Of a DNA stretch of 64,000 nt, positions 6,558 to 54,175 are shown piece after piece. The notes beneath the pieces are model-generated. The model worked only from the letters and a program-made list of their open reading frames with translations. It made no database searches and was not told the origin of the DNA. The DNA is from Microbulbifer sp. Q7 (GTDB lineage: Bacteria > Pseudomonadota > Gammaproteobacteria > Pseudomonadales > Cellvibrionaceae), in contig NZ_LROY01000002.1 in assembly GCF_001639145.1 (NCBI RefSeq), positions 62,001-126,000 on the forward strand, in the 5' to 3' direction. A program made the position numbers and the translations under genes. How positions within the stretch are numbered: the first letter of the stretch is position 1; every line of letters starts with the position of its first letter.

Positions 6558-7436
6558 ATGTCCGACGAGCGTTATACCCCACCCAGAGTCTGGAAGTGGG
6601 ACTCCGAAAGCGGCGGCCAGTTCGCCAACATCAATCGCCCCATTGCCGGCCCCACCCACGACAAAGAGCTGCCGGTGGGCAAGCACCCCATGCAGCTGTA
6701 TTCCCTCGCTACCCCCAACGGGGTCAAAGTTACCCTCATGCTCGAGGAGCTGCTGGCGCTTGGCTTCGAGGGCGCCGAATACGATGCGCATCTGATCCGC
6801 ATTACCGAGGGGGATCAGTTCGGCAGTGGCTTCGTCGATATCAATCCCAACTCAAAAATTCCCGCGCTGGTGGACCACAGTACCAATCCGCCGATTCGCG
6901 TATTTGAGTCCGGTTCTATCCTGCTGTACCTGGCAGAAAAATTCGGGGCGTTTCTACCGCACACCCCAGAACAGCGCACCGAAACACTCAACTGGCTGTT
7001 CTGGCAGATGGGCGCCGCGCCCTATCTCGGTGGCGGGTTCGGCCACTTCTACGCCTACGCGCCGGAAAAATACGAGTACCCCATCAATCGCTTCACCATG
7101 GAGGTAAAGCGTCAGCTGGATGTGCTCGACCGGCAGCTGGCAGAGCATCCGTTTGTTGCGGGCAAGGAATACACCATTGCCGATATGGCGATCTGGCCCT
7201 GGTATGGCGCGGTGGTAAAAAACAAAGCGTATGATGCGGCGGAGTTTCTGGAAGCCCACACCTATAAACACGTAAACCGCTGGGTGGACGAGATTGGCGA
7301 GCGTCCTGCGGTCAAGCGGGGAAGCATGGTGAATCGGACCTGGGGTGACCCAGCCGGGCAGCTACATGAACGGCACGACGCCAGCGATTTTGATCTGCGC
7401 ACACAGGACAAAATCGGCGATGAAAATGGCGAGTAA
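6558..7436 (+). CDS. yghU: YghU-type glutathione S-transferase / disulfide-bond reductase
   Basis: A 292-residue protein matching E. coli YghU nearly end to end, including the N-terminal extension before the thioredoxin fold (VWKWDSESGGQFANINRP), the SLATPNGVKVTLMLEELL segment and the SGSILLYLAEKFG glutathione-binding motif, followed by a helical C-terminal domain with WLFWQMGAAPYLGGGFGHF. YghU binds two glutathiones and has disulfide reductase and organic hydroperoxidase activity in E. coli. The ATG follows a GGGAG ribosome site. No operon partner: 57 bp to the convergent cynS. Confidence 0.95.
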   Translation: MSDERYTPPRVWKWDSESGGQFANINRPIAGPTHDKELPVGKHPMQLYSLATPNGVKVTLMLEELLALGFEGAEYDAHLIRITEGDQFGSGFVDINPNSKIPALVDHSTNPPIRVFESGSILLYLAEKFGAFLPHTPEQRTETLNWLFWQMGAAPYLGGGFGHFYAYAPEKYEYPINRFTMEVKRQLDVLDRQLAEHPFVAGKEYTIADMAIWPWYGAVVKNKAYDAAEFLEAHTYKHVNRWVDEIGERPAVKRGSMVNRTWGDPAGQLHERHDASDFDLRTQDKIGDENGE

Positions 7437-7450
7437 CCTTTGAGGCTCCA

Positions 7451-7486
7451 GGCGTCGAGGGCGGACAGAAGCCCGCCTTCGATGCC
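7451..7486. terminator. Long hairpin between convergent yghU and cynS
   Basis: Arms 7451-7464 (GGCGTCGAGGGCGG) and 7473-7486 (CCGCCTTCGATGCC) can form a 14-bp RNA stem with two G-U pairs and an 8-base loop. It sits between the ends of two convergent genes, where a shared terminator is expected, but neither strand has a U-run after it, so intrinsic termination would be weak. Confidence 0.45.
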
Positions 7487-7492
7487 AGTTAC

Positions 7493-7942
7493 TCAATAGG
7501 TTTTGTAGGGCAGGAACTTGCCAGACATCACCATGTGTACCCGGTCCCCTTTCGGGTCTTCCTCGCGCTGGATATCCATGGAAAAGTCGATGGCGCTCAT
7601 GATGCCATCGCCAAACTCTTCGTGAATCAATTCTTTGATCGTGCTGCCGTACACATTCACCAGTTCATACAGACGGTAGATCAGTGGGTCGGTGGGTACG
7701 GCAGTGGGCAGTGAGCCCTTGTAGGGCGCTATCTGCAGCCAGGCCGTGGCTTCGTCGCTCAGGTCAAACAGCTCCCCGACCACATCGGCCTGGGCTTTGG
7801 TCAGGGTCATCTGCCCGAGACAGGCGGCGGTAGTCCACTCCTTGGATTGGCCGATGGCATCGGCGACCTGACTCCATTTAAGTTCTTTACGCACTTTGGC
7901 GGAGAGAATCATCGCGGTGACTTGTTCGCGGTTACTGATCAT
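7493..7942 (-). CDS. cynS: Cyanate hydratase (cyanase)
   Basis: A 149-residue protein of the CynS family. An N-terminal helix-turn-helix-like domain (about residues 10-70) is followed by the catalytic domain with R90, E93 and S116 in YRLYELVNVYG and GDGIMSAIDF; these correspond to E. coli R96, E99 and S122. Cyanase converts cyanate and bicarbonate to ammonia and CO2, detoxifying cyanate and supplying nitrogen. The start has an AGGAG ribosome site. It is the last gene of a transporter, kinase-phosphatase, cynS series; the placement under nitrogen-type control (see the leader at 10750-10992) fits use as a nitrogen source. Confidence 0.97.
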   Translation of the reverse strand: MISNREQVTAMILSAKVRKELKWSQVADAIGQSKEWTTAACLGQMTLTKAQADVVGELFDLSDEATAWLQIAPYKGSLPTAVPTDPLIYRLYELVNVYGSTIKELIHEEFGDGIMSAIDFSMDIQREEDPKGDRVHMVMSGKFLPYKTY

Positions 7943-7985
7943 GGGTTGCTCCTGTTTAGGGTCGAACGGGTGAGGGAAACTCTGT

Positions 7986-9767
7986 TCAGGTGGTTGTGCC
8001 GATGATGCTCAGCAGGTACACAATAATCAGCAGTAGAATGCCGCTGACCGACTGCCAGAAACGCACCGGATAGCGCTCCATCAACGGCGGGCGAGTGGCA
8101 TGGATGTATTCCGGGTTCGGGTGCCGCAGCTCGCGCACAAATTCCGAAAGGGCTTCGTGGCGTCGCAGCGGGTTTATTTGCAGTGCTTTTTTCAGGGCGG
8201 AATCGATCCAGGCGGGAATTTCCCGGGATTCGCTCAGAACACTGCGGTAGCGCAACTTGTGTTGCGCGGCCTGGGTGGTGCAGCGCGCCACCCGGGTGCC
8301 GTAGGGAAATTCGCCAGATAGCAGGTGATAGGTCAGCACTGCCAGAGAAAAAAGGTCCGAGCGCGGGGTGCCCAGGTCGCCAAGAAAATACTCCGGTGCG
8401 CTGTACAGGGCGGTGCCGAGAATCTGCGGGCTGGTTTCCCCGGCGTTTGCCGCAATACCCTCTGCCGCAATACCTTCCGGAAAATTCATCAGGTAACTTG
8501 CCGCAATACCGCTGACCTGGGCCGAGCCCAGGTCGATCAGCGTGACGGTGCCTGCGCTGCTGATCATGATGTTTTCTGGCCGCACATCCTGGTGCAGGAT
8601 TTCCGCCCGATGCAGCGCCTGCAGGCCTTTGGCCACCTGTTCCACGATGCCGCGCACGGTTTCCAGATCGGGGTTGGGGTTGTCGGTCATCCACTGGCGC
8701 AGGTTCTGACCTTCGGCCAGCTCCATGGCGGTATACAGATAGGTGCGGGGGCGATGGGTGGCTGCTGCATGGATCACGTGCACGCTGTTCACGCGACGGG
8801 CCACCCACTCTTCCATCAACAGCCTTTCCAGATAGGCGGGATCGTCTGACAGGTCGATGGACGGGGTTTTCAGTACCACACGGGTATCGCTCGCCTGGTC
8901 GTACGCCAGGTAGACGTGGCTTCGGCTACTGGCATGTATCTCGCGCTCAATGCGGTAGCCGTCGAAGGCGTCACCGCTTTTTAACAGCGGCGGGAGAGGT
9001 AGCTTCTCTACCTGTTCGGTCAATTGTGGCGTGGCCTCAGGTAGCTCGGCGACACGCACTAATTGCACCGTCAGGTTATCCGTGCTGCCGTTGGCCAGGG
9101 CCTTGTCGACCAGGGTCCTGGCGATATCGCTGAGGTCGCTGTCACGCTGCTCCAGGTGTCCGGCCAACTCGGCCTGCGAGAGGGATTCGTGCACCCCATC
9201 GGTGGTAAGGATATAGACATCGCCCACTTCCAGTGTCAGTCGCCGGTAATCCGCCTCCACCTGTGGTGCAACCCCGAGGGCGCGGCTGAGATAGCTGCGT
9301 TGTTCGCCCACCCACTGGCGATGGTCGTGGGTGAGTTGCTCCAGGGAGCCGCGGCGCAGACGGTAAATGCGCGAGTCACCAATATGGAACAGGTGGGCCT
9401 CCCCACCCTTGAAAATTGCGCTGCTGAACGTACACACATACCCCTTGTCTTTATCGTACCGGTAGGGGCTTTGTCGGGTCTGGTCATAGAGCCAGGCATT
9501 GGTGGCCTTCAATACCTGCGCCACAGCACTTTGTACGCTCCAGCCGTCGGACGTGCAGTAGTAGTCGTCGAGAAAACTTTTTACCGCAGTCTCGCTGGCA
9601 ATGGCGCTGACCGTGCTTGAGCTGATGCCATCGGCGATCGCCAATGCGGCGCCTTTCAGCCCCAGTTGCGGCTCAGGCGGAAAGCGTATGCCACAGCTGT
9701 CCTGATTTTCCGCTTTGAGGCCGGCGCTGCTGTACTGACCGATGTCGAGTTGCAGAGTGTTGTTCAT
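7986..9767 (-). CDS. PP2C phosphatase-protein kinase fusion with C-terminal membrane anchor
   Basis: A 593-residue bifunctional signalling protein. Residues 1-240 form a PP2C-type Ser/Thr phosphatase with metal-binding motifs ADG (45-47), GDS (130-132) and TTDG (188-191). Residues about 270-545 form a protein kinase with the ATP lysine K300, the catalytic loop LHQDVRPENI (D394), DLG at 412-414 and an APE at 457-459; the glycine-rich loop is degenerate. A single hydrophobic segment at 573-590 anchors it, kinase inward. Similar fusions are often found beside nitrate/nitrite transporters. An AGIAA-like repeat (GIAA three times, residues 420-440) sits in the activation segment. Substrates are unknown. 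Starts 43 bp after the transporter stop, behind a terminator-like hairpin. Confidence 0.9.
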   Translation of the reverse strand: MNNTLQLDIGQYSSAGLKAENQDSCGIRFPPEPQLGLKGAALAIADGISSSTVSAIASETAVKSFLDDYYCTSDGWSVQSAVAQVLKATNAWLYDQTRQSPYRYDKDKGYVCTFSSAIFKGGEAHLFHIGDSRIYRLRRGSLEQLTHDHRQWVGEQRSYLSRALGVAPQVEADYRRLTLEVGDVYILTTDGVHESLSQAELAGHLEQRDSDLSDIARTLVDKALANGSTDNLTVQLVRVAELPEATPQLTEQVEKLPLPPLLKSGDAFDGYRIEREIHASSRSHVYLAYDQASDTRVVLKTPSIDLSDDPAYLERLLMEEWVARRVNSVHVIHAAATHRPRTYLYTAMELAEGQNLRQWMTDNPNPDLETVRGIVEQVAKGLQALHRAEILHQDVRPENIMISSAGTVTLIDLGSAQVSGIAASYLMNFPEGIAAEGIAANAGETSPQILGTALYSAPEYFLGDLGTPRSDLFSLAVLTYHLLSGEFPYGTRVARCTTQAAQHKLRYRSVLSESREIPAWIDSALKKALQINPLRRHEALSEFVRELRHPNPEYIHATRPPLMERYPVRFWQSVSGILLLIIVYLLSIIGTTT

Positions 9768-9809: not shown

Positions 9810-10649
9810 TCAGGCGAGCGCCGGGTTTGCGTCAGCCGCGGTCAGCTGGCGTTTCGGTGCGGTTTTGTAGTGTGTGCTGTACAGGGTCAGGCCGGTAAAC
9901 GCGAGGCCGCCAACGAGGTTGCCCAGTGCGGTGGGGATTTCATTCCAGATCAGATAATCCATCACCGAAAAATCGCCGCCCATCATGATTGCGGTGGGGA
10001 ACAGGAACATGTTCACCACAGAGTGCTCGAAGGCCATAAAGAAGAACAGCATGATCGGCATCCACATGGCGATCACCTTGCCGCTGACGTTGGTCGATAC
10101 CATCGCCCCAACCACGCCCATGGACACCATCCAGTTACACAGCATGCCGCGCACGAAGATGGTGAACCAGCCGGCGGCTCCGTACTCGGCGTAGCCGAGA
10201 GTACGCGCTTCACCGATGGAGGAAAGCTTGGCACCCACCGCACCCGGCTCGGTGTTAAAGCCCATGGTGAAAACAAAAGCCATCATCACCGCTACGGTAA
10301 GCGCACCGGCAAAGTTGCCCACGAAAACCAGCCCCCAGTTGCGCAGAATTCCGCCCCAGGTAACACCCGGTCGTTTGTCGAGCCATGCCAGCGGCGCGAG
10401 TACAAAGACCCCGGTGAGCAGGTCAAAGCCCATCAGGTAAAGCATGCAAAAACCTACCGGGAACAGGATCGAGCCGACAAGATGGGAGCCAGTAGTCACC
10501 GCCACGGTTACCGCGAATACCGCAGCCAGTGCCAGGATGGCACCCGCCATATAGGCGCGTACCAGAGTGTCACGGGTGGACATGTAAATTTTGGACTCCC
10601 CCGCGTCGACCATTTTGGTCACGAATTCGTTGGGAACGAGATAAGCCAT
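9810..10649 (-). CDS. Formate/nitrite transporter family protein
   Basis: A 279-residue FNT (FocA/NirC) family channel with six membrane segments. Features include the AGAILALAAVFAV first helix, the GNFAGAL segment of the re-entrant region and the LVGGLAFTG motif near the C-terminus. The frame is open upstream, but the ATG at 10649 was chosen because of a strong AAGGTG ribosome site and because MAYLVPNEFVTKMVDAG aligns with family N-termini. Nitrite is the likely substrate given the divergent NasR-type regulator and the antitermination leader; formate cannot be excluded from sequence. First gene of the operon with the kinase-phosphatase and cynS. Confidence 0.9.
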   Translation of the reverse strand: MAYLVPNEFVTKMVDAGESKIYMSTRDTLVRAYMAGAILALAAVFAVTVAVTTGSHLVGSILFPVGFCMLYLMGFDLLTGVFVLAPLAWLDKRPGVTWGGILRNWGLVFVGNFAGALTVAVMMAFVFTMGFNTEPGAVGAKLSSIGEARTLGYAEYGAAGWFTIFVRGMLCNWMVSMGVVGAMVSTNVSGKVIAMWMPIMLFFFMAFEHSVVNMFLFPTAIMMGGDFSVMDYLIWNEIPTALGNLVGGLAFTGLTLYSTHYKTAPKRQLTAADANPALA

Positions 10650-10749: not shown

Positions 10750-10797
10750 AAAAAAAGCGCCCACACAGACCAGCCTTAGCCGGAACGTGATGGACGC
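10750..10797 (-). terminator. Intrinsic terminator in the transporter-operon leader (attenuator)
   Basis: In the minus-strand leader RNA, GCGUCC (10797-10792) pairs with GGGCGC (10759-10754), extended by A-U and CAC/GUG pairs around one bulge; an inner CCGGC/GCUGG stem closes a UAAG loop, and seven U residues follow. This is a complete Rho-independent terminator about 100 nt before the transporter ATG. Its 5' arm contains the GUCCA that also forms the 3' side of the upstream hairpin at 10791-10806, so the two structures exclude each other. Confidence 0.85.
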
Positions 10798-10871
10798 CTT
10801 TATCCAGAATATTCGTTATGTCACGGGCGGAAGCCCTGCAGGGTTTGCGCAACCTGTCGCGCCAGAACCCT
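10791..10871 (-). promoter_or_regulatory. Candidate ANTAR-responsive dual-hairpin RNA
   Basis: Two hairpins with six-base loops are visible in the minus-strand leader. Hairpin 1 (10840-10871): GCGCG and UGCGC close the loop ACAGGU (10857-10852), with an outer AGGGUU/AACCCU stem. Hairpin 2 (10791-10806): UGGAU and GUCCA close the loop AAAGGC (10801-10796). Both loops have A in position 1 and G in position 4, the pattern known for RNAs bound by ANTAR-domain antiterminators, and hairpin 2 overlaps the terminator arm as in that mechanism. The linker is about 33 nt, longer than in the published examples I recall. The divergent gene encodes a NIT-ANTAR protein, the expected ligand. Confidence 0.75.
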
Positions 10872-10884
10872 ACGCTTACGCTTG

Positions 10885-10902
10885 AAGCAAGTTCGGTGCC
10901 AA
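10885..10902 (-). promoter_or_regulatory. Sigma-54 promoter of the transporter-kinase-cynS operon
   Basis: Reading the minus strand, TTGGCACCGAACTTGCTT gives the -24 GG and -12 GC with exactly ten bases between, a near-perfect sigma-54 element (consensus TGGCAC-N5-TTGC). The transcription start would fall near 10875, just before the first leader hairpin. It implies activation by an enhancer-binding protein, most simply NtrC. Confidence 0.85.
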
Positions 10903-10975: not shown

Positions 10976-10992
10976 TGCACGATTGTGGTGCA
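10976..10992. promoter_or_regulatory. NtrC-like enhancer site
   Basis: TGCACGATTGTGGTGCA differs at one position from the NtrC dyad consensus TGCAC(C)N4TGGTGCA. It is centred about 110 bp upstream of the start predicted from the sigma-54 element, a usual distance for NtrC. No second strong site was found nearby. Confidence 0.7.
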
Positions 10993-11170: not shown

Positions 11171-12529
11171 ATGCCCAATCACAGTGAAGACGCAGAGAAA
11201 TTCCTGCTCGCCGCCAAGCGTTCCGAGATCCAGGCGTTGGAGCGACTGGCGAGTAGTTGTGAACTGGTGACCACCGTATCGGACCTGGTTCACCAGCTGC
11301 AGCGGGAGCGCGGTATCAGCAATATCTACCTGGTGTCCTCCGGGCATCGGTTTGCGGCCCTGCGCAGGGAGCAGATTCGGGAGGGCACCCGCAGTGCGGA
11401 TACCTTCCGCCAGCTGTTGCACGACCAGTACCTGCAGAGTGACCGTTGCAGTAGTCCACGGGACATGCGCCTGTTGAACAGTATCGCTTATTCATTGCAT
11501 GGCCTGGATGAGCTTGAAGAGCTGCGACGTCACATCGATGCATTTGAAGTAAACGCCCTGGGGTCCACGGATGCCTATTGCCGGTTGATTGCCGGATTAC
11601 TTTCGGTGGTGTTTGAGGCCGCCGACGTTGCGGATGATCCGGAGGTGACTCGGCTGCTGGTGGCACTGTTTAACTTCATGCAGGCCAAGGAATTTGCGGG
11701 ACAGGAGCGGGCCTGGGGTGCCATCGGATTTGCCGGTAGCCGGTTCGACGAAAAGCTGCATTTGCGTCTTGAACAGTTACAGGATTGTCAGCGGCGGAGC
11801 CTGGAGGTTTTTCTGGAGTTTGCCGGAGAAACCGAAGAATCCAGCTGGCAGGAAATTGTGGACAGTGAGGCGTCGCGGGATCTGAATCGGCTGCGCCGGG
11901 TGATTGCAGGACTGAAAAACGGCGAGCCCATCTCGCCGGAGGTGAGCGAAGTCTGGTATCAGCTGGCCACAGCGCGTATTGATGCCATGCATGGTGTTGA
12001 AGACGCGATGGCCGCCCGTCTGTTGCAGGTGAGTCGCCAGCGGGTGGCGGATGCGCAATCGGAATTGGGGCATCATCGCGCGCAACTACAGAAAATGAAA
12101 TCTTCTGACTGGGGGCGCGTACCGGCGCTGGCGGTGTTGTTCGACCCCGAAGTGCCCGGGCTCTATGGGCGCGCGGAGACCGCAGCAGTGCCGGCCCTGA
12201 ATGGGCAGAACCTGACGCATTCCCTGTACGACCTGATTCGCTCACAGGTTGCGCATATTCAGAGAGTGAACGAAGAACTGGAGGAAACCCGCCGGGCCCT
12301 GACGGAGCGCAAGTTGATCGAGCGGGCCAAGGGCGTACTGATGCGCAGCCTGCGACTGAGTGAGGACGATGCGTACCGGACTATGCAACAGCGCGCGATG
12401 GAAATGAATCTCAGGCTTGCGGACGTGGCGCAAAAAATTATTGAGATCGGGAGCCAGCGTAGTGCCACGAACCCCGACGGCGGCAGCGCGCGGCCCAGGT
12501 CGACGGCGGGAGACGGCAAACCACTTTGA
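11171..12529 (+). CDS. nasR: NasR-type nitrate-responsive antiterminator (NIT + ANTAR domains)
   Basis: A 452-residue protein. The N-terminal part (about residues 10-300) is the all-helical NIT nitrate/nitrite-sensing domain with the signature KRSEIQALERLASSCELV, then LVHQLQRERGISNIYLVSSG. The C-terminal ANTAR RNA-binding domain is the LTERKLIERAKGVLMR block and the following two helices. NasR of Klebsiella binds leader hairpins when nitrate or nitrite is present and prevents termination of the nas operon. The frame is open from a GTG at 10985, but the ATG at 11171 matches the family N-terminus; no start has a strong ribosome site. Divergent from the transporter operon whose leader carries the candidate target. 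Confidence 0.88.
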   Translation: MPNHSEDAEKFLLAAKRSEIQALERLASSCELVTTVSDLVHQLQRERGISNIYLVSSGHRFAALRREQIREGTRSADTFRQLLHDQYLQSDRCSSPRDMRLLNSIAYSLHGLDELEELRRHIDAFEVNALGSTDAYCRLIAGLLSVVFEAADVADDPEVTRLLVALFNFMQAKEFAGQERAWGAIGFAGSRFDEKLHLRLEQLQDCQRRSLEVFLEFAGETEESSWQEIVDSEASRDLNRLRRVIAGLKNGEPISPEVSEVWYQLATARIDAMHGVEDAMAARLLQVSRQRVADAQSELGHHRAQLQKMKSSDWGRVPALAVLFDPEVPGLYGRAETAAVPALNGQNLTHSLYDLIRSQVAHIQRVNEELEETRRALTERKLIERAKGVLMRSLRLSEDDAYRTMQQRAMEMNLRLADVAQKIIEIGSQRSATNPDGGSARPRSTAGDGKPL

Positions 12530-53893: not shown

Positions 53894-53969
53894 GGGTCGT
53901 TAGCTCAGTTGGTAGAGCAGTTGGCTTTTAACCAATTGGTCGCTGGTTCGAATCCAGCACGACCCACCA
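53894..53969 (+). tRNA. tRNA-Lys (anticodon TTT)
   Basis: A 76-nt gene that includes an encoded CCA end. Acceptor GGGTCGT pairs with ACGACCC; the D-arm (AGCTCAGTTGGTAGAGC), anticodon stem TTGGC with the loop around TTT and its partner strand, and T-loop GGTTCGAATCC are all present. It reads Lys codons AAA/AAG. Confidence 0.98.
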
Positions 53970-54099: not shown

Positions 54100-54175
54100 G
54101 GGTCGTTAGCTCAGTTGGTAGAGCAGTTGGCTTTTAACCAATTGGTCGCTGGTTCGAATCCAGCACGACCCACCA
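54100..54175 (+). tRNA. tRNA-Lys (anticodon TTT), second copy
   Basis: Identical in sequence to the copy at 53894-53969, with a 130-bp spacer that contains no gene. The two are probably made from one precursor. Confidence 0.98.

What the first reader, a model, noticed from the sequence alone, without database searches (positions are those of the whole stretch)
10750..10902. Two-hairpin ANTAR leader whose second hairpin excludes a terminator
Seen in sequence on the minus strand: two hairpins with six-base loops, ACAGGU and AAAGGC, both A at position 1 and G at position 4. The second hairpin shares GUCCA with the 5' arm of a full intrinsic terminator (7 U), so RNA folding chooses one or the other. 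Established: ANTAR proteins (NasR, EutV) bind such paired hairpins and prevent termination. Inference: the NIT-ANTAR protein encoded divergently binds here when nitrate or nitrite is present and lets RNA polymerase read into the transporter, kinase and cynS. The linker between the hairpins (about 33 nt) is longer than in described cases, which is the unusual part.
Basis: partly seen in the sequence, partly recalled or inferred. Interest (0 to 1): 0.82.

Follow-up and report, generated by a model that had tools for sequence, protein, structure and literature searches.

The report
Nitrate-sensing RNA switch with odd spacing
Upstream of a nitrite-transporter and cyanase operon in the marine bacterium Microbulbifer lies an RNA on/off switch of the kind read by nitrate-sensing proteins; its second hairpin is well supported and conserved, while its first hairpin and the spacing differ from the textbook version in a way that can be tested.

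Summary
The leader is real. P2 and terminator occur in all 22 Microbulbifer leaders examined, with compensatory changes, and in other gammaproteobacteria; the 14-nt P2 core is identical in Klebsiella beside nasR. Of 50 FNT genomes of the order, 15 of 40 with an ANTAR protein have the element and 0 of 10 without; it follows NIT-ANTAR. So: NasR-type antitermination of an fnt-kinase-cynS operon.

Its stem covaries, but an A1/G4 hexaloop is in only 8 of the 22 leaders (about 1 expected), its closing pair is G-U, and the linker is 40 nt, not 33, holding an invariant hairpin. About 19 nt stay unpaired, near the 17-21 nt of some other genera, longer than EutV or nasF. Five species lack NIT-ANTAR yet keep the leader, so NasT may read it too. 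New variant of a known kind.

The parts
10976..10992 (-). NtrC-like site TGCACC-N5-CGTGCA (1 mismatch to the recalled consensus TGCACC-N5-GGTGCA)
   Evidence: best site has at most 2 mismatches in 14 of 22 Microbulbifer upstream regions; for this one 0 of 200 mononucleotide shuffles are as good
10886..10902 (-). sigma-54-type promoter TTGGCACCGAACTTGCT (-24/-12); start predicted about 10875 (not measured)
   Evidence: sequence; TGGCA[CT]-N4-6-TTGC upstream in 22 of 22 orthologous leaders
10838..10873 (-). P1 complete: lower stem 10873-10866 with 10845-10838, upper stem-loop inside
   Evidence: fold: 4 of 17 pairs of P1+Pm changed on both sides in the 8 alignable of 17 group-1 leaders (17 of 500 shuffles reach 4)
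10847..10862 (-).
   Evidence: some A1/G4 hexaloop hairpin upstream of P2 in 8 of 22 leaders, this one included
   Evidence: 4 of 4 pairs invariant in 8 leaders (so no covariation evidence there); differing stems in further group-1 leaders seen by eye
10807..10824 (-). unpaired 18-nt spacer before P2 (ACAA-type sequence in many relatives)
   Evidence: last hairpin to P2 gap of 16-21 nt in 13 of 22 Microbulbifer and 10 of 38 other FNT leaders, 3.5% and 4.9% in shuffles; 2 of 18 nas leaders (3.9%)
10791..10806 (-). P2, antiterminator hairpin UGGAU-AAAGGC-GUCCA
   Evidence: 95.5% of cells paired, 2 of 5 pairs changed on both sides; GGATAAAGGCGTCC is the one exact match to the searched pattern in the genome and is in the Klebsiella nasR-nasF leader
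10750..10801 (-). intrinsic terminator, 5' arm overlapping the P2 loop and 3' arm, 7 U
   Evidence: 92.7% of cells paired, 6 of 15 pairs changed on both sides, 0 of 500 shuffles reach the covariation score; switch
9810..10649 (-). formate/nitrite transporter family (FNT) gene, ATG at 10649
   Evidence: PF01226 1.1e-64; start by sequence
7986..9767 (-). PP2C phosphatase / Ser-Thr kinase fusion
   Evidence: PF13672, PF00069
7493..7942 (-). cynS, cyanase
   Evidence: PF02560, PF21291; NCBIfam cynS over cut-off
11171..12529 (+). NIT-ANTAR regulator (NasR-like); open frame from 10985, likely start 11171
   Evidence: PF08376 8e-54, PF03861 1.2e-18; NasR structure 4akk E 7.4e-41, match from residue 63 of the frame

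Best explanation
A sigma-54 (probably NtrC-activated) promoter starts a leader RNA that folds P1, Pm and P2 as it emerges. Without signal the terminator's 3' arm displaces P2 and RNA polymerase stops at the 7-U run. With nitrate or nitrite bound, an ANTAR protein (in this species most likely the divergently encoded NIT-ANTAR, NasR-like protein) holds the P2 hexaloop, with an upstream hairpin at an unpaired distance of about 18-19 nt, and polymerase reads on into the nitrite transporter, kinase and cyanase genes. Shown by computation and comparison: the parts, the switch in folding, the conservation of P2 and terminator, and the co-occurrence with ANTAR/NIT-ANTAR. Inferred: binding, ligand, NtrC control, operon transcription, transcript start, and the role of P1.
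For: Switch in folding from P2 to terminator. P2 and terminator in 22 of 22 Microbulbifer orthologous leaders with compensatory changes. P2+terminator in 44 of 107 further FNT loci (6 of the 44 repeat Microbulbifer species). Of 50 FNT genomes of the order, P2+terminator in 15 of 40 with an ANTAR protein and 0 of 10 without (p 0.018), and in 11 of 15 with NIT-ANTAR against 4 of 25 with only other ANTAR proteins (p 4.6e-4) (related genomes, so p values are optimistic). P2 core identical in the Klebsiella nasR-nasF region, which also has a sigma-54-type site and a terminator. NIT-ANTAR adjacent in 17 of 22. NasR RNA-contact positions R340, K341, K347, N373 kept; K345 is R, W362 is Y (numbering fitted by hand).
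Against: No expression or binding data. Five Microbulbifer species keep the leader but have no detected NIT domain protein. NasR R366, needed for RNA binding in Klebsiella NasR (PMC7496416 passage), is Q here. The P1 loop signature is not kept in most relatives, and the linker exceeds lengths that abolish EutV antitermination. 63 of 107 further FNT loci gave no P2+terminator; 25 of 40 ANTAR-bearing genomes, 4 of the 15 with NIT-ANTAR among them, have none before FNT.
Confidence: 0.82

Rival explanations
1. P2-only reading: in Microbulbifer the ANTAR protein recognises just the P2 hexaloop. The upstream hairpins (P1, Pm) are generic structured spacers, and the A1/G4 hexaloop of P1 in the window is largely coincidence.
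For: A1/G4 hexaloop in only 8 of 22 leaders, one of them (L007) overlapping a better hairpin and one (L015) in an extra upstream hairpin; 3 of 22 with C:G closing. In the eight alignable leaders the P1 loop has 7-9 nt between the C:G pairs (by eye). In the genus' other ANTAR target, the nas leader beside nasT-nasS, 0 of 18 have one (1 of 18 with the relaxed 3-pair rule) and L184 has about 25 nt before P2. In Alteromonas and others the hairpin nearest P2 has a non-ANTAR loop.
Against: A/G is the commonest combination at loop positions 1 and 4 in FNT leaders (8 of 22, next 3; 12 of 38, next 5) and above shuffles (expected 0.98 and 1.20), so P1 looks selected in part of the set. Deleting P1 abolishes EutV induction in E. 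faecalis (PMC3369931 section 7).
Confidence: 0.35
2. The regulator is NasT (encoded with NasS near C2:2291 kb), not or not only the NIT-ANTAR protein.
For: A NasT-sized protein is the only ANTAR protein in G018, G024, G035, G046, G047, which keep P2+terminator. Neighbourhoods of ANTAR genes without a NIT domain elsewhere have the same kind of P2.
Against: G005 keeps the leader with NIT-ANTAR as its only ANTAR protein; P2+terminator before FNT tracks NIT-ANTAR. P2 has a U-G closing pair in 23 of 28 leaders from NIT-ANTAR genomes and 0 of 9 from genomes without (counted; test).
Confidence: 0.25
3. An ordinary attenuator or plain terminator unrelated to ANTAR proteins.
For: The P2 loop letters are also used by the terminator stem, so their conservation is partly forced; no Rfam match over a cut-off.
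Against: The P2 5' arm is not part of the terminator, yet pairs and co-varies; none found in 10 of 10 ANTAR-less FNT genomes; identity with the Klebsiella nasF P2 core.
Confidence: 0.05

Closest known systems
Klebsiella nasF leader read by NasR (NIT-ANTAR)
   Same: sigma-54-type site, P2 core GGAU-AAAGGC-GUCC identical including the U-G closing pair, overlapping terminator with 7 U, NIT-ANTAR gene next door (K. pneumoniae record, the studied strain is K. oxytoca)
   Different: P1 there is CGAACC-AAUGGC-GGUUCG with a 9-nt linker, before a nitrate ABC transporter operon; here P1 ACAGGU with G-U closing, 40-nt linker with an inserted hairpin, operon fnt-kinase-cynS, regulator divergent
EutV dual-hairpin antiterminators of Enterococcus faecalis eut genes (PMC3369931, PMC8934654)
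   Same: hexaloops with A1 and G4, P2 excluded by the terminator
   Different: EutV linkers 5-12 nt; lengthening to 14 nt or by 20 nt abolishes function; signal by phosphorylation of a response regulator
Leaders beside NasT/NasS-type ANTAR genes
   Same: P2+terminator before nas genes, also in this genome (L140 about 9447-9496)
   Different: regulator class; in other genera a canonical P1 ends within 8 nt of P2 in 8 of the 12 neighbourhoods that gave a P2+terminator, 20 examined (these ANTAR genes lack a NIT domain, NasT and AmiR types not told apart)

Membership tests
ANTAR dual-hairpin target RNA | P2 hairpin with hexaloop A1/G4 | tested here: met
   A1 in 21 of 22 leaders (G in L023), G4 in 22 of 22
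ANTAR dual-hairpin target RNA | P2 overlaps and excludes an intrinsic terminator | tested here: met
   (computed folding)
ANTAR dual-hairpin target RNA | P1 hairpin with hexaloop A1/G4 | tested here: inconclusive
   present in the window, but an A1/G4 hexaloop in 8 of 22 orthologous leaders only; enriched over shuffles and over other loop combinations
ANTAR dual-hairpin target RNA | C:G pair closing the loops (NasR SELEX, PMC7496416 section 2.1) | tested here: not met
   P1 closed by G-U, P2 by U-G; U-G at P2 is shared with Klebsiella nasF
ANTAR dual-hairpin target RNA | short linker between the hairpins (5-12 nt in eut; 2-25 nt allowed in the actinobacterial survey PMC8164766) | tested here: not met
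   40 nt from hexaloop hairpin to P2, 31 from the P1 base, about 19 unpaired
ANTAR dual-hairpin target RNA | ANTAR protein encoded in the genome | tested here: met
   two in this genome; at least one in each of the 22 Microbulbifer genomes with the leader
NasR (NIT-ANTAR) proteins | NIT domain followed by ANTAR domain | tested here: met
   one search aligns both domains to 4akk
NasR (NIT-ANTAR) proteins | RNA-binding residues R340, K341, K345, K347, R366, N373 | tested here: inconclusive
   R340, K341, K347, N373 kept; K345 to R; R366 to Q (numbering fitted by hand)
NasR (NIT-ANTAR) proteins | nitrate/nitrite-dependent RNA binding and antitermination | not testable with these tools
   needs purified protein or a reporter strain

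The most novel reading that the evidence does not exclude
Natural ANTAR switches can work from one recognised hexaloop: in Microbulbifer both ANTAR targets (fnt and nas leaders) keep P2 and its terminator while the ANTAR loop of P1 decays or is absent, and in fnt leaders an arbitrary hairpin is kept at a fixed unpaired distance of about 16-20 nt from P2. The two-hairpin rule would then be a special case, and the upstream hairpin a spacing or recruitment element rather than a sequence-specific site.
Probability: 0.35. Interest if true: 0.68.

Novelty: new variant of a known kind. Interest (0 to 1): 0.5.

Why it matters
It extends NasR-type antitermination to a nitrite-transporter / kinase / cyanase operon, tying cyanate breakdown to nitrate or nitrite sensing. 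It also gives a natural series: 22 congeneric leaders in two regulator settings, with P1 loops from canonical to absent, plus relatives whose linkers run from 9 nt (Klebsiella) to 43 nt (L229). That makes an open question of ANTAR biology directly testable: whether both hexaloops and a short linker are needed outside EutV.

Tried and rejected
Rfam: no family reached its gathering score in the leader, and one sub-threshold ctRNA match (20.4 bits against 50, E 0.061) was judged chance. The simple terminator scan listed another site (10945-10926) and not this one. A genome-wide search for further P2 sites with up to two mismatches was uninformative (229 matches, 398 for the reversed-pattern control); only the exact match at this locus counts. 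Two one-mismatch sites in this window (55986 and 62799) lie inside reading frames on the other strand and were dropped. The middle hairpin as the true P1 was considered: it sits at the distance where some other genera have P1, but its loop is A1/G4 with a clean hairpin only in L017. The first leader alignment was useless because half the loci were in the wrong orientation, and the orientation rule was wrong for six; redone. A search for any hairpin ending 12-24 nt before P2 gave 22 of 22 (Microbulbifer fnt), 23 of 38 and 12 of 18 (nas) at -4 kcal/mol against 58%, 35% and 41% in shuffles, too weak to use alone. The orphan NIT-ANTAR loci (L201-L203) gave no P2+terminator within the 16 kb taken. 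Azospirillum L241 gave none either. Eight of 20 neighbourhoods of non-NIT ANTAR genes gave none, and some of the hits in the other twelve may be chance.

Rows dropped before counts: one search set B leaves out 6 loci that repeat Microbulbifer species (38 of 44); set C leaves out L189 (its leader repeats that of the window's genome) and L196, L199 (no leader anchored by the promoter pattern), 18 of 21; the P1/Pm pair count used the 8 alignable of 17 group-1 leaders; G230 (partial match at a contig end) and the three Microbulbifer genomes were left out of the 50 order genomes. The P2 detectors differ slightly (L114 passes only the second). Sets contain close relatives, so shuffle and Fisher values are optimistic.

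Full report
What is there. The window lies in a Microbulbifer genome: the genomes of its genus that hold the FNT gene include contigs named Microbulbifer. On the minus strand the order is NtrC-like site (10992-10976), sigma-54-type promoter TTGGCACCGAACTTGCT (10902-10886), P1 (10873-10838, with the hexaloop hairpin at 10862-10847), a middle hairpin Pm GGGC-UUCC-GCCC (10836-10825), an 18-nt spacer (10824-10807), P2 (10806-10791), the terminator (10801-10750), then FNT, PP2C-kinase and cynS. The promoter and NtrC consensus sequences are recalled. Gaps between the three genes are 42 and 43 nt, so an operon is likely (inference). The divergent gene is a NIT-ANTAR protein whose nearest solved structure is NasR, 4akk.

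Does the switch exist? Partition-function folding of growing transcripts gives P2 at 0.77-0.99 until position 116 of the assumed transcript and terminator at 0.99-1.00 from 120 on. P1 stays at 0.94 and Pm at 0.79-0.98. Minimum free energies are -3.6 (P2) and -27.9 (terminator) kcal/mol, so without a bound protein the terminator wins.

Is it conserved? Of 48 genomes of the genus, 33 have some match to the FNT protein and 22, this one included, an ortholog at 80-100% identity. All 22 orthologous leaders carry a sigma-54-type element and P2 plus terminator. On the alignment of all 22, P2 pairs in 95.5% of cells with 2 of 5 pairs changed on both sides and no shuffle of 500 reaching the covariation score; the terminator pairs in 92.7% with 6 of 15 pairs changed on both sides and again no shuffle reaching the score. 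Against: the outer P2 pair fails in 5 of 22 and the innermost terminator pair counted in 12 of 22; shuffles reach two double-changed P2 pairs in 56 of 500. The P2 5' arm is outside the terminator, so its pairing is independent evidence.

How wide is it? P2 plus terminator was found in 66 of 129 FNT loci examined (22 Microbulbifer and 44 of 107 further loci), among them Alteromonas, Pseudoalteromonas, Rheinheimera, Marinobacterium, Marinobacter and Pseudomonas; 63 of the 107 gave none. The detection asks for a paired P2, so outside Microbulbifer it is biased towards pairing. Of 50 FNT-bearing genomes of the order, 15 of 40 with an ANTAR protein have the element and 0 of 10 without one (Fisher 0.018). 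Among the 40, it is in 11 of 15 with a NIT-ANTAR protein and 4 of 25 with only other ANTAR proteins (p 4.6e-4). These genomes are related, so the p values are optimistic.

The yardstick. The Klebsiella nasR-nasF intergenic region has a sigma-54-type site, P1 CGAACC-AAUGGC-GGUUCG, a 9-nt linker, P2 GGAU-AAAGGC-GUCC and a terminator. The 14-nt P2 core is identical to the window's, wobble closing pair included. In this genome the only exact match to the searched pattern is at this locus. Pantoea and Erwinia nasR neighbourhoods have the same P2 with 3 and 1 nt after P1.

What is wrong with P1. In the eight leaders that align through P1 the stem is kept with compensatory changes: 91.8% of cells paired for P1 and Pm together (83.9% in the lower P1 stem), 4 of 17 pairs changed on both sides, all in P1; 17 of 500 shuffles and one slid version reach 4 such pairs, none of 500 the covariation score. 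Pm never varies in these eight. The loop differs: between the conserved C:G pairs it has 7 to 9 nt. An A1/G4 hexaloop hairpin with at least 4 pairs lies upstream of P2 in 8 of 22 Microbulbifer leaders against 0.98 expected from shuffles, and in 12 of 38 leaders of other genera against 1.20. A/G is the commonest combination at positions 1 and 4 (8 against at most 3; 12 against at most 5). So the signature looks selected in part of the set but is absent from most members. With the C:G closing pair seen in NasR SELEX and at least 3 pairs it is in 3 of 22 and 13 of 38. In the window the closing pair is G-U, and A1 can pair with U6. In the nas leader of the same genus, beside nasT-nasS, no such P1 is found in 18 leaders, with 0.77 expected (1 of 18, L181, under the relaxed rule), and L184 has about 25 nt between the predicted start and P2. 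In other genera, neighbourhoods of ANTAR genes without a NIT domain do have a canonical P1 within 8 nt of P2: 8 of the 12 with a P2 plus terminator, 20 examined.

The linker. It is 40 nt from the P1 hexaloop hairpin to P2, or 31 from the base of P1, with Pm inside, leaving 19 unpaired. Elsewhere canonical P1 hairpins without an inserted hairpin end 17-21 nt before P2 in L056, L066, L069, L074, L088, L125 and L127, and canonical P1 plus an inserted hairpin occurs in Pseudomonas (L067, L082), in Microbulbifer L010 and L011, and in L229 beside a NIT-ANTAR gene (43 nt; inserted hairpins read by eye). The last upstream hairpin ends 16-21 nt before P2 in 13 of 22 Microbulbifer and 10 of 38 other fnt leaders, against 3.5% and 4.9% of shuffles; in the nas leaders it is 2 of 18 against 3.9%. 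The longer spacing is therefore a trait of part of this group of fnt leaders, not an oddity of the window. EutV linkers are 5-12 nt, and lengthening to 14 nt or by 20 nt abolishes function (PMC3369931 section 7 and passages; PMC8934654 passages). The actinobacterial survey allowed 2-25 nt (PMC8164766 passages).

Which regulator? NIT-ANTAR is adjacent in 17 of 22. In the other five (G018, G024, G035, G046, G047) the only ANTAR protein is NasT-sized and no NIT domain protein was found, yet the leader is kept, with a C:G instead of a U-G closing pair on P2. One species, G005, has NIT-ANTAR as its only ANTAR protein. Both proteins can therefore probably serve the element; in the window's genome, which has both, NIT-ANTAR is the better guess. 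The U-G closing pair occurs in 23 of 28 leaders from genomes with NIT-ANTAR and 0 of 9 from genomes without (my count, test), a possible specificity mark.

Known or new. The mechanism and both protein classes are known. Ramesh and colleagues already list nitrate and nitrite transporters and nitrite reductase among predicted ANTAR targets (PMC3369931, passage; of this paper I read sections 7, 11, 20, the first part of 10, and passages). Of PMC7496416 I read sections 1 and 2.1 and passages. No paper holding both 'ANTAR domain' and 'cyanase' was found in the held library, and a search with ANTAR, antitermination and Microbulbifer listed no paper on ANTAR regulation in that genus among the 15 shown of 216 ('antar' also matches Antarctica). 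I therefore call it a new variant of a known kind: same switch, an operon I found no report for, interrupted linker and relaxed P1. It does not meet every feature of the strict dual-hairpin definition (linker length and closing pair tested and not met), so I say it works like a NasR-type ANTAR attenuator rather than that it is a standard member.

Noticed in passing
L140 (G000:C2:2284000-2302000), nasT 7364-7981 to nirB: A second ANTAR system in the same genome: nasT, nasS, a leader with P2 GGAC-AGCGAA-GUCC plus terminator and no A1/G4 P1, then a nitrate transporter, a second PP2C-kinase fusion and nirB (names by resemblance, no family scan run on them apart from the ANTAR match).
   Followed up: partly
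P2 closing pair, window 10802/10795 and relatives: U-G closing pair on P2 in 23 of 28 leaders from genomes with NIT-ANTAR (also in the Klebsiella, Pantoea and Erwinia nasR leaders) and 0 of 9 from genomes without; may mark which ANTAR protein reads the site.
   Followed up: partly
L201, L202, L203 (G001, G002, G003): Three Microbulbifer species keep the NIT-ANTAR gene in the same gene neighbourhood although no FNT ortholog was found in them; the divergent neighbour is a sirtuin-like gene (P0001, by eye), and no P2+terminator was found in the 16 kb taken.
   Followed up: partly
window 10992-10976 and -75 to -152 upstream of the -24 element in relatives: NtrC-like palindromes (at most 2 mismatches in 14 of 22) upstream of the sigma-54 element, suggesting a nitrogen-limitation AND nitrate gate.
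   Followed up: partly
Alteromonas-type loci L041, L043, L051, L059: At the position of P1 a weak AAACC-(5 nt)-GGUUU hairpin, loop without the ANTAR signature, 18 nt before P2 in all four.
   Followed up: no
L184 (G003) versus L185 (G002): The nas leader of G003 lacks about 80 nt present in G002 between promoter and P2: nearly everything upstream of P2 is gone.
   Followed up: no
window 53894-53969 and 54100-54175: Two tRNA-Lys(TTT) genes with equal Rfam scores in tandem, 130 nt apart.
   Followed up: no
NIT-ANTAR, residue aligned to NasR R366: R366, needed for RNA binding in NasR, is Q here; whether this goes with the relaxed P1 was not tested.
   Followed up: no
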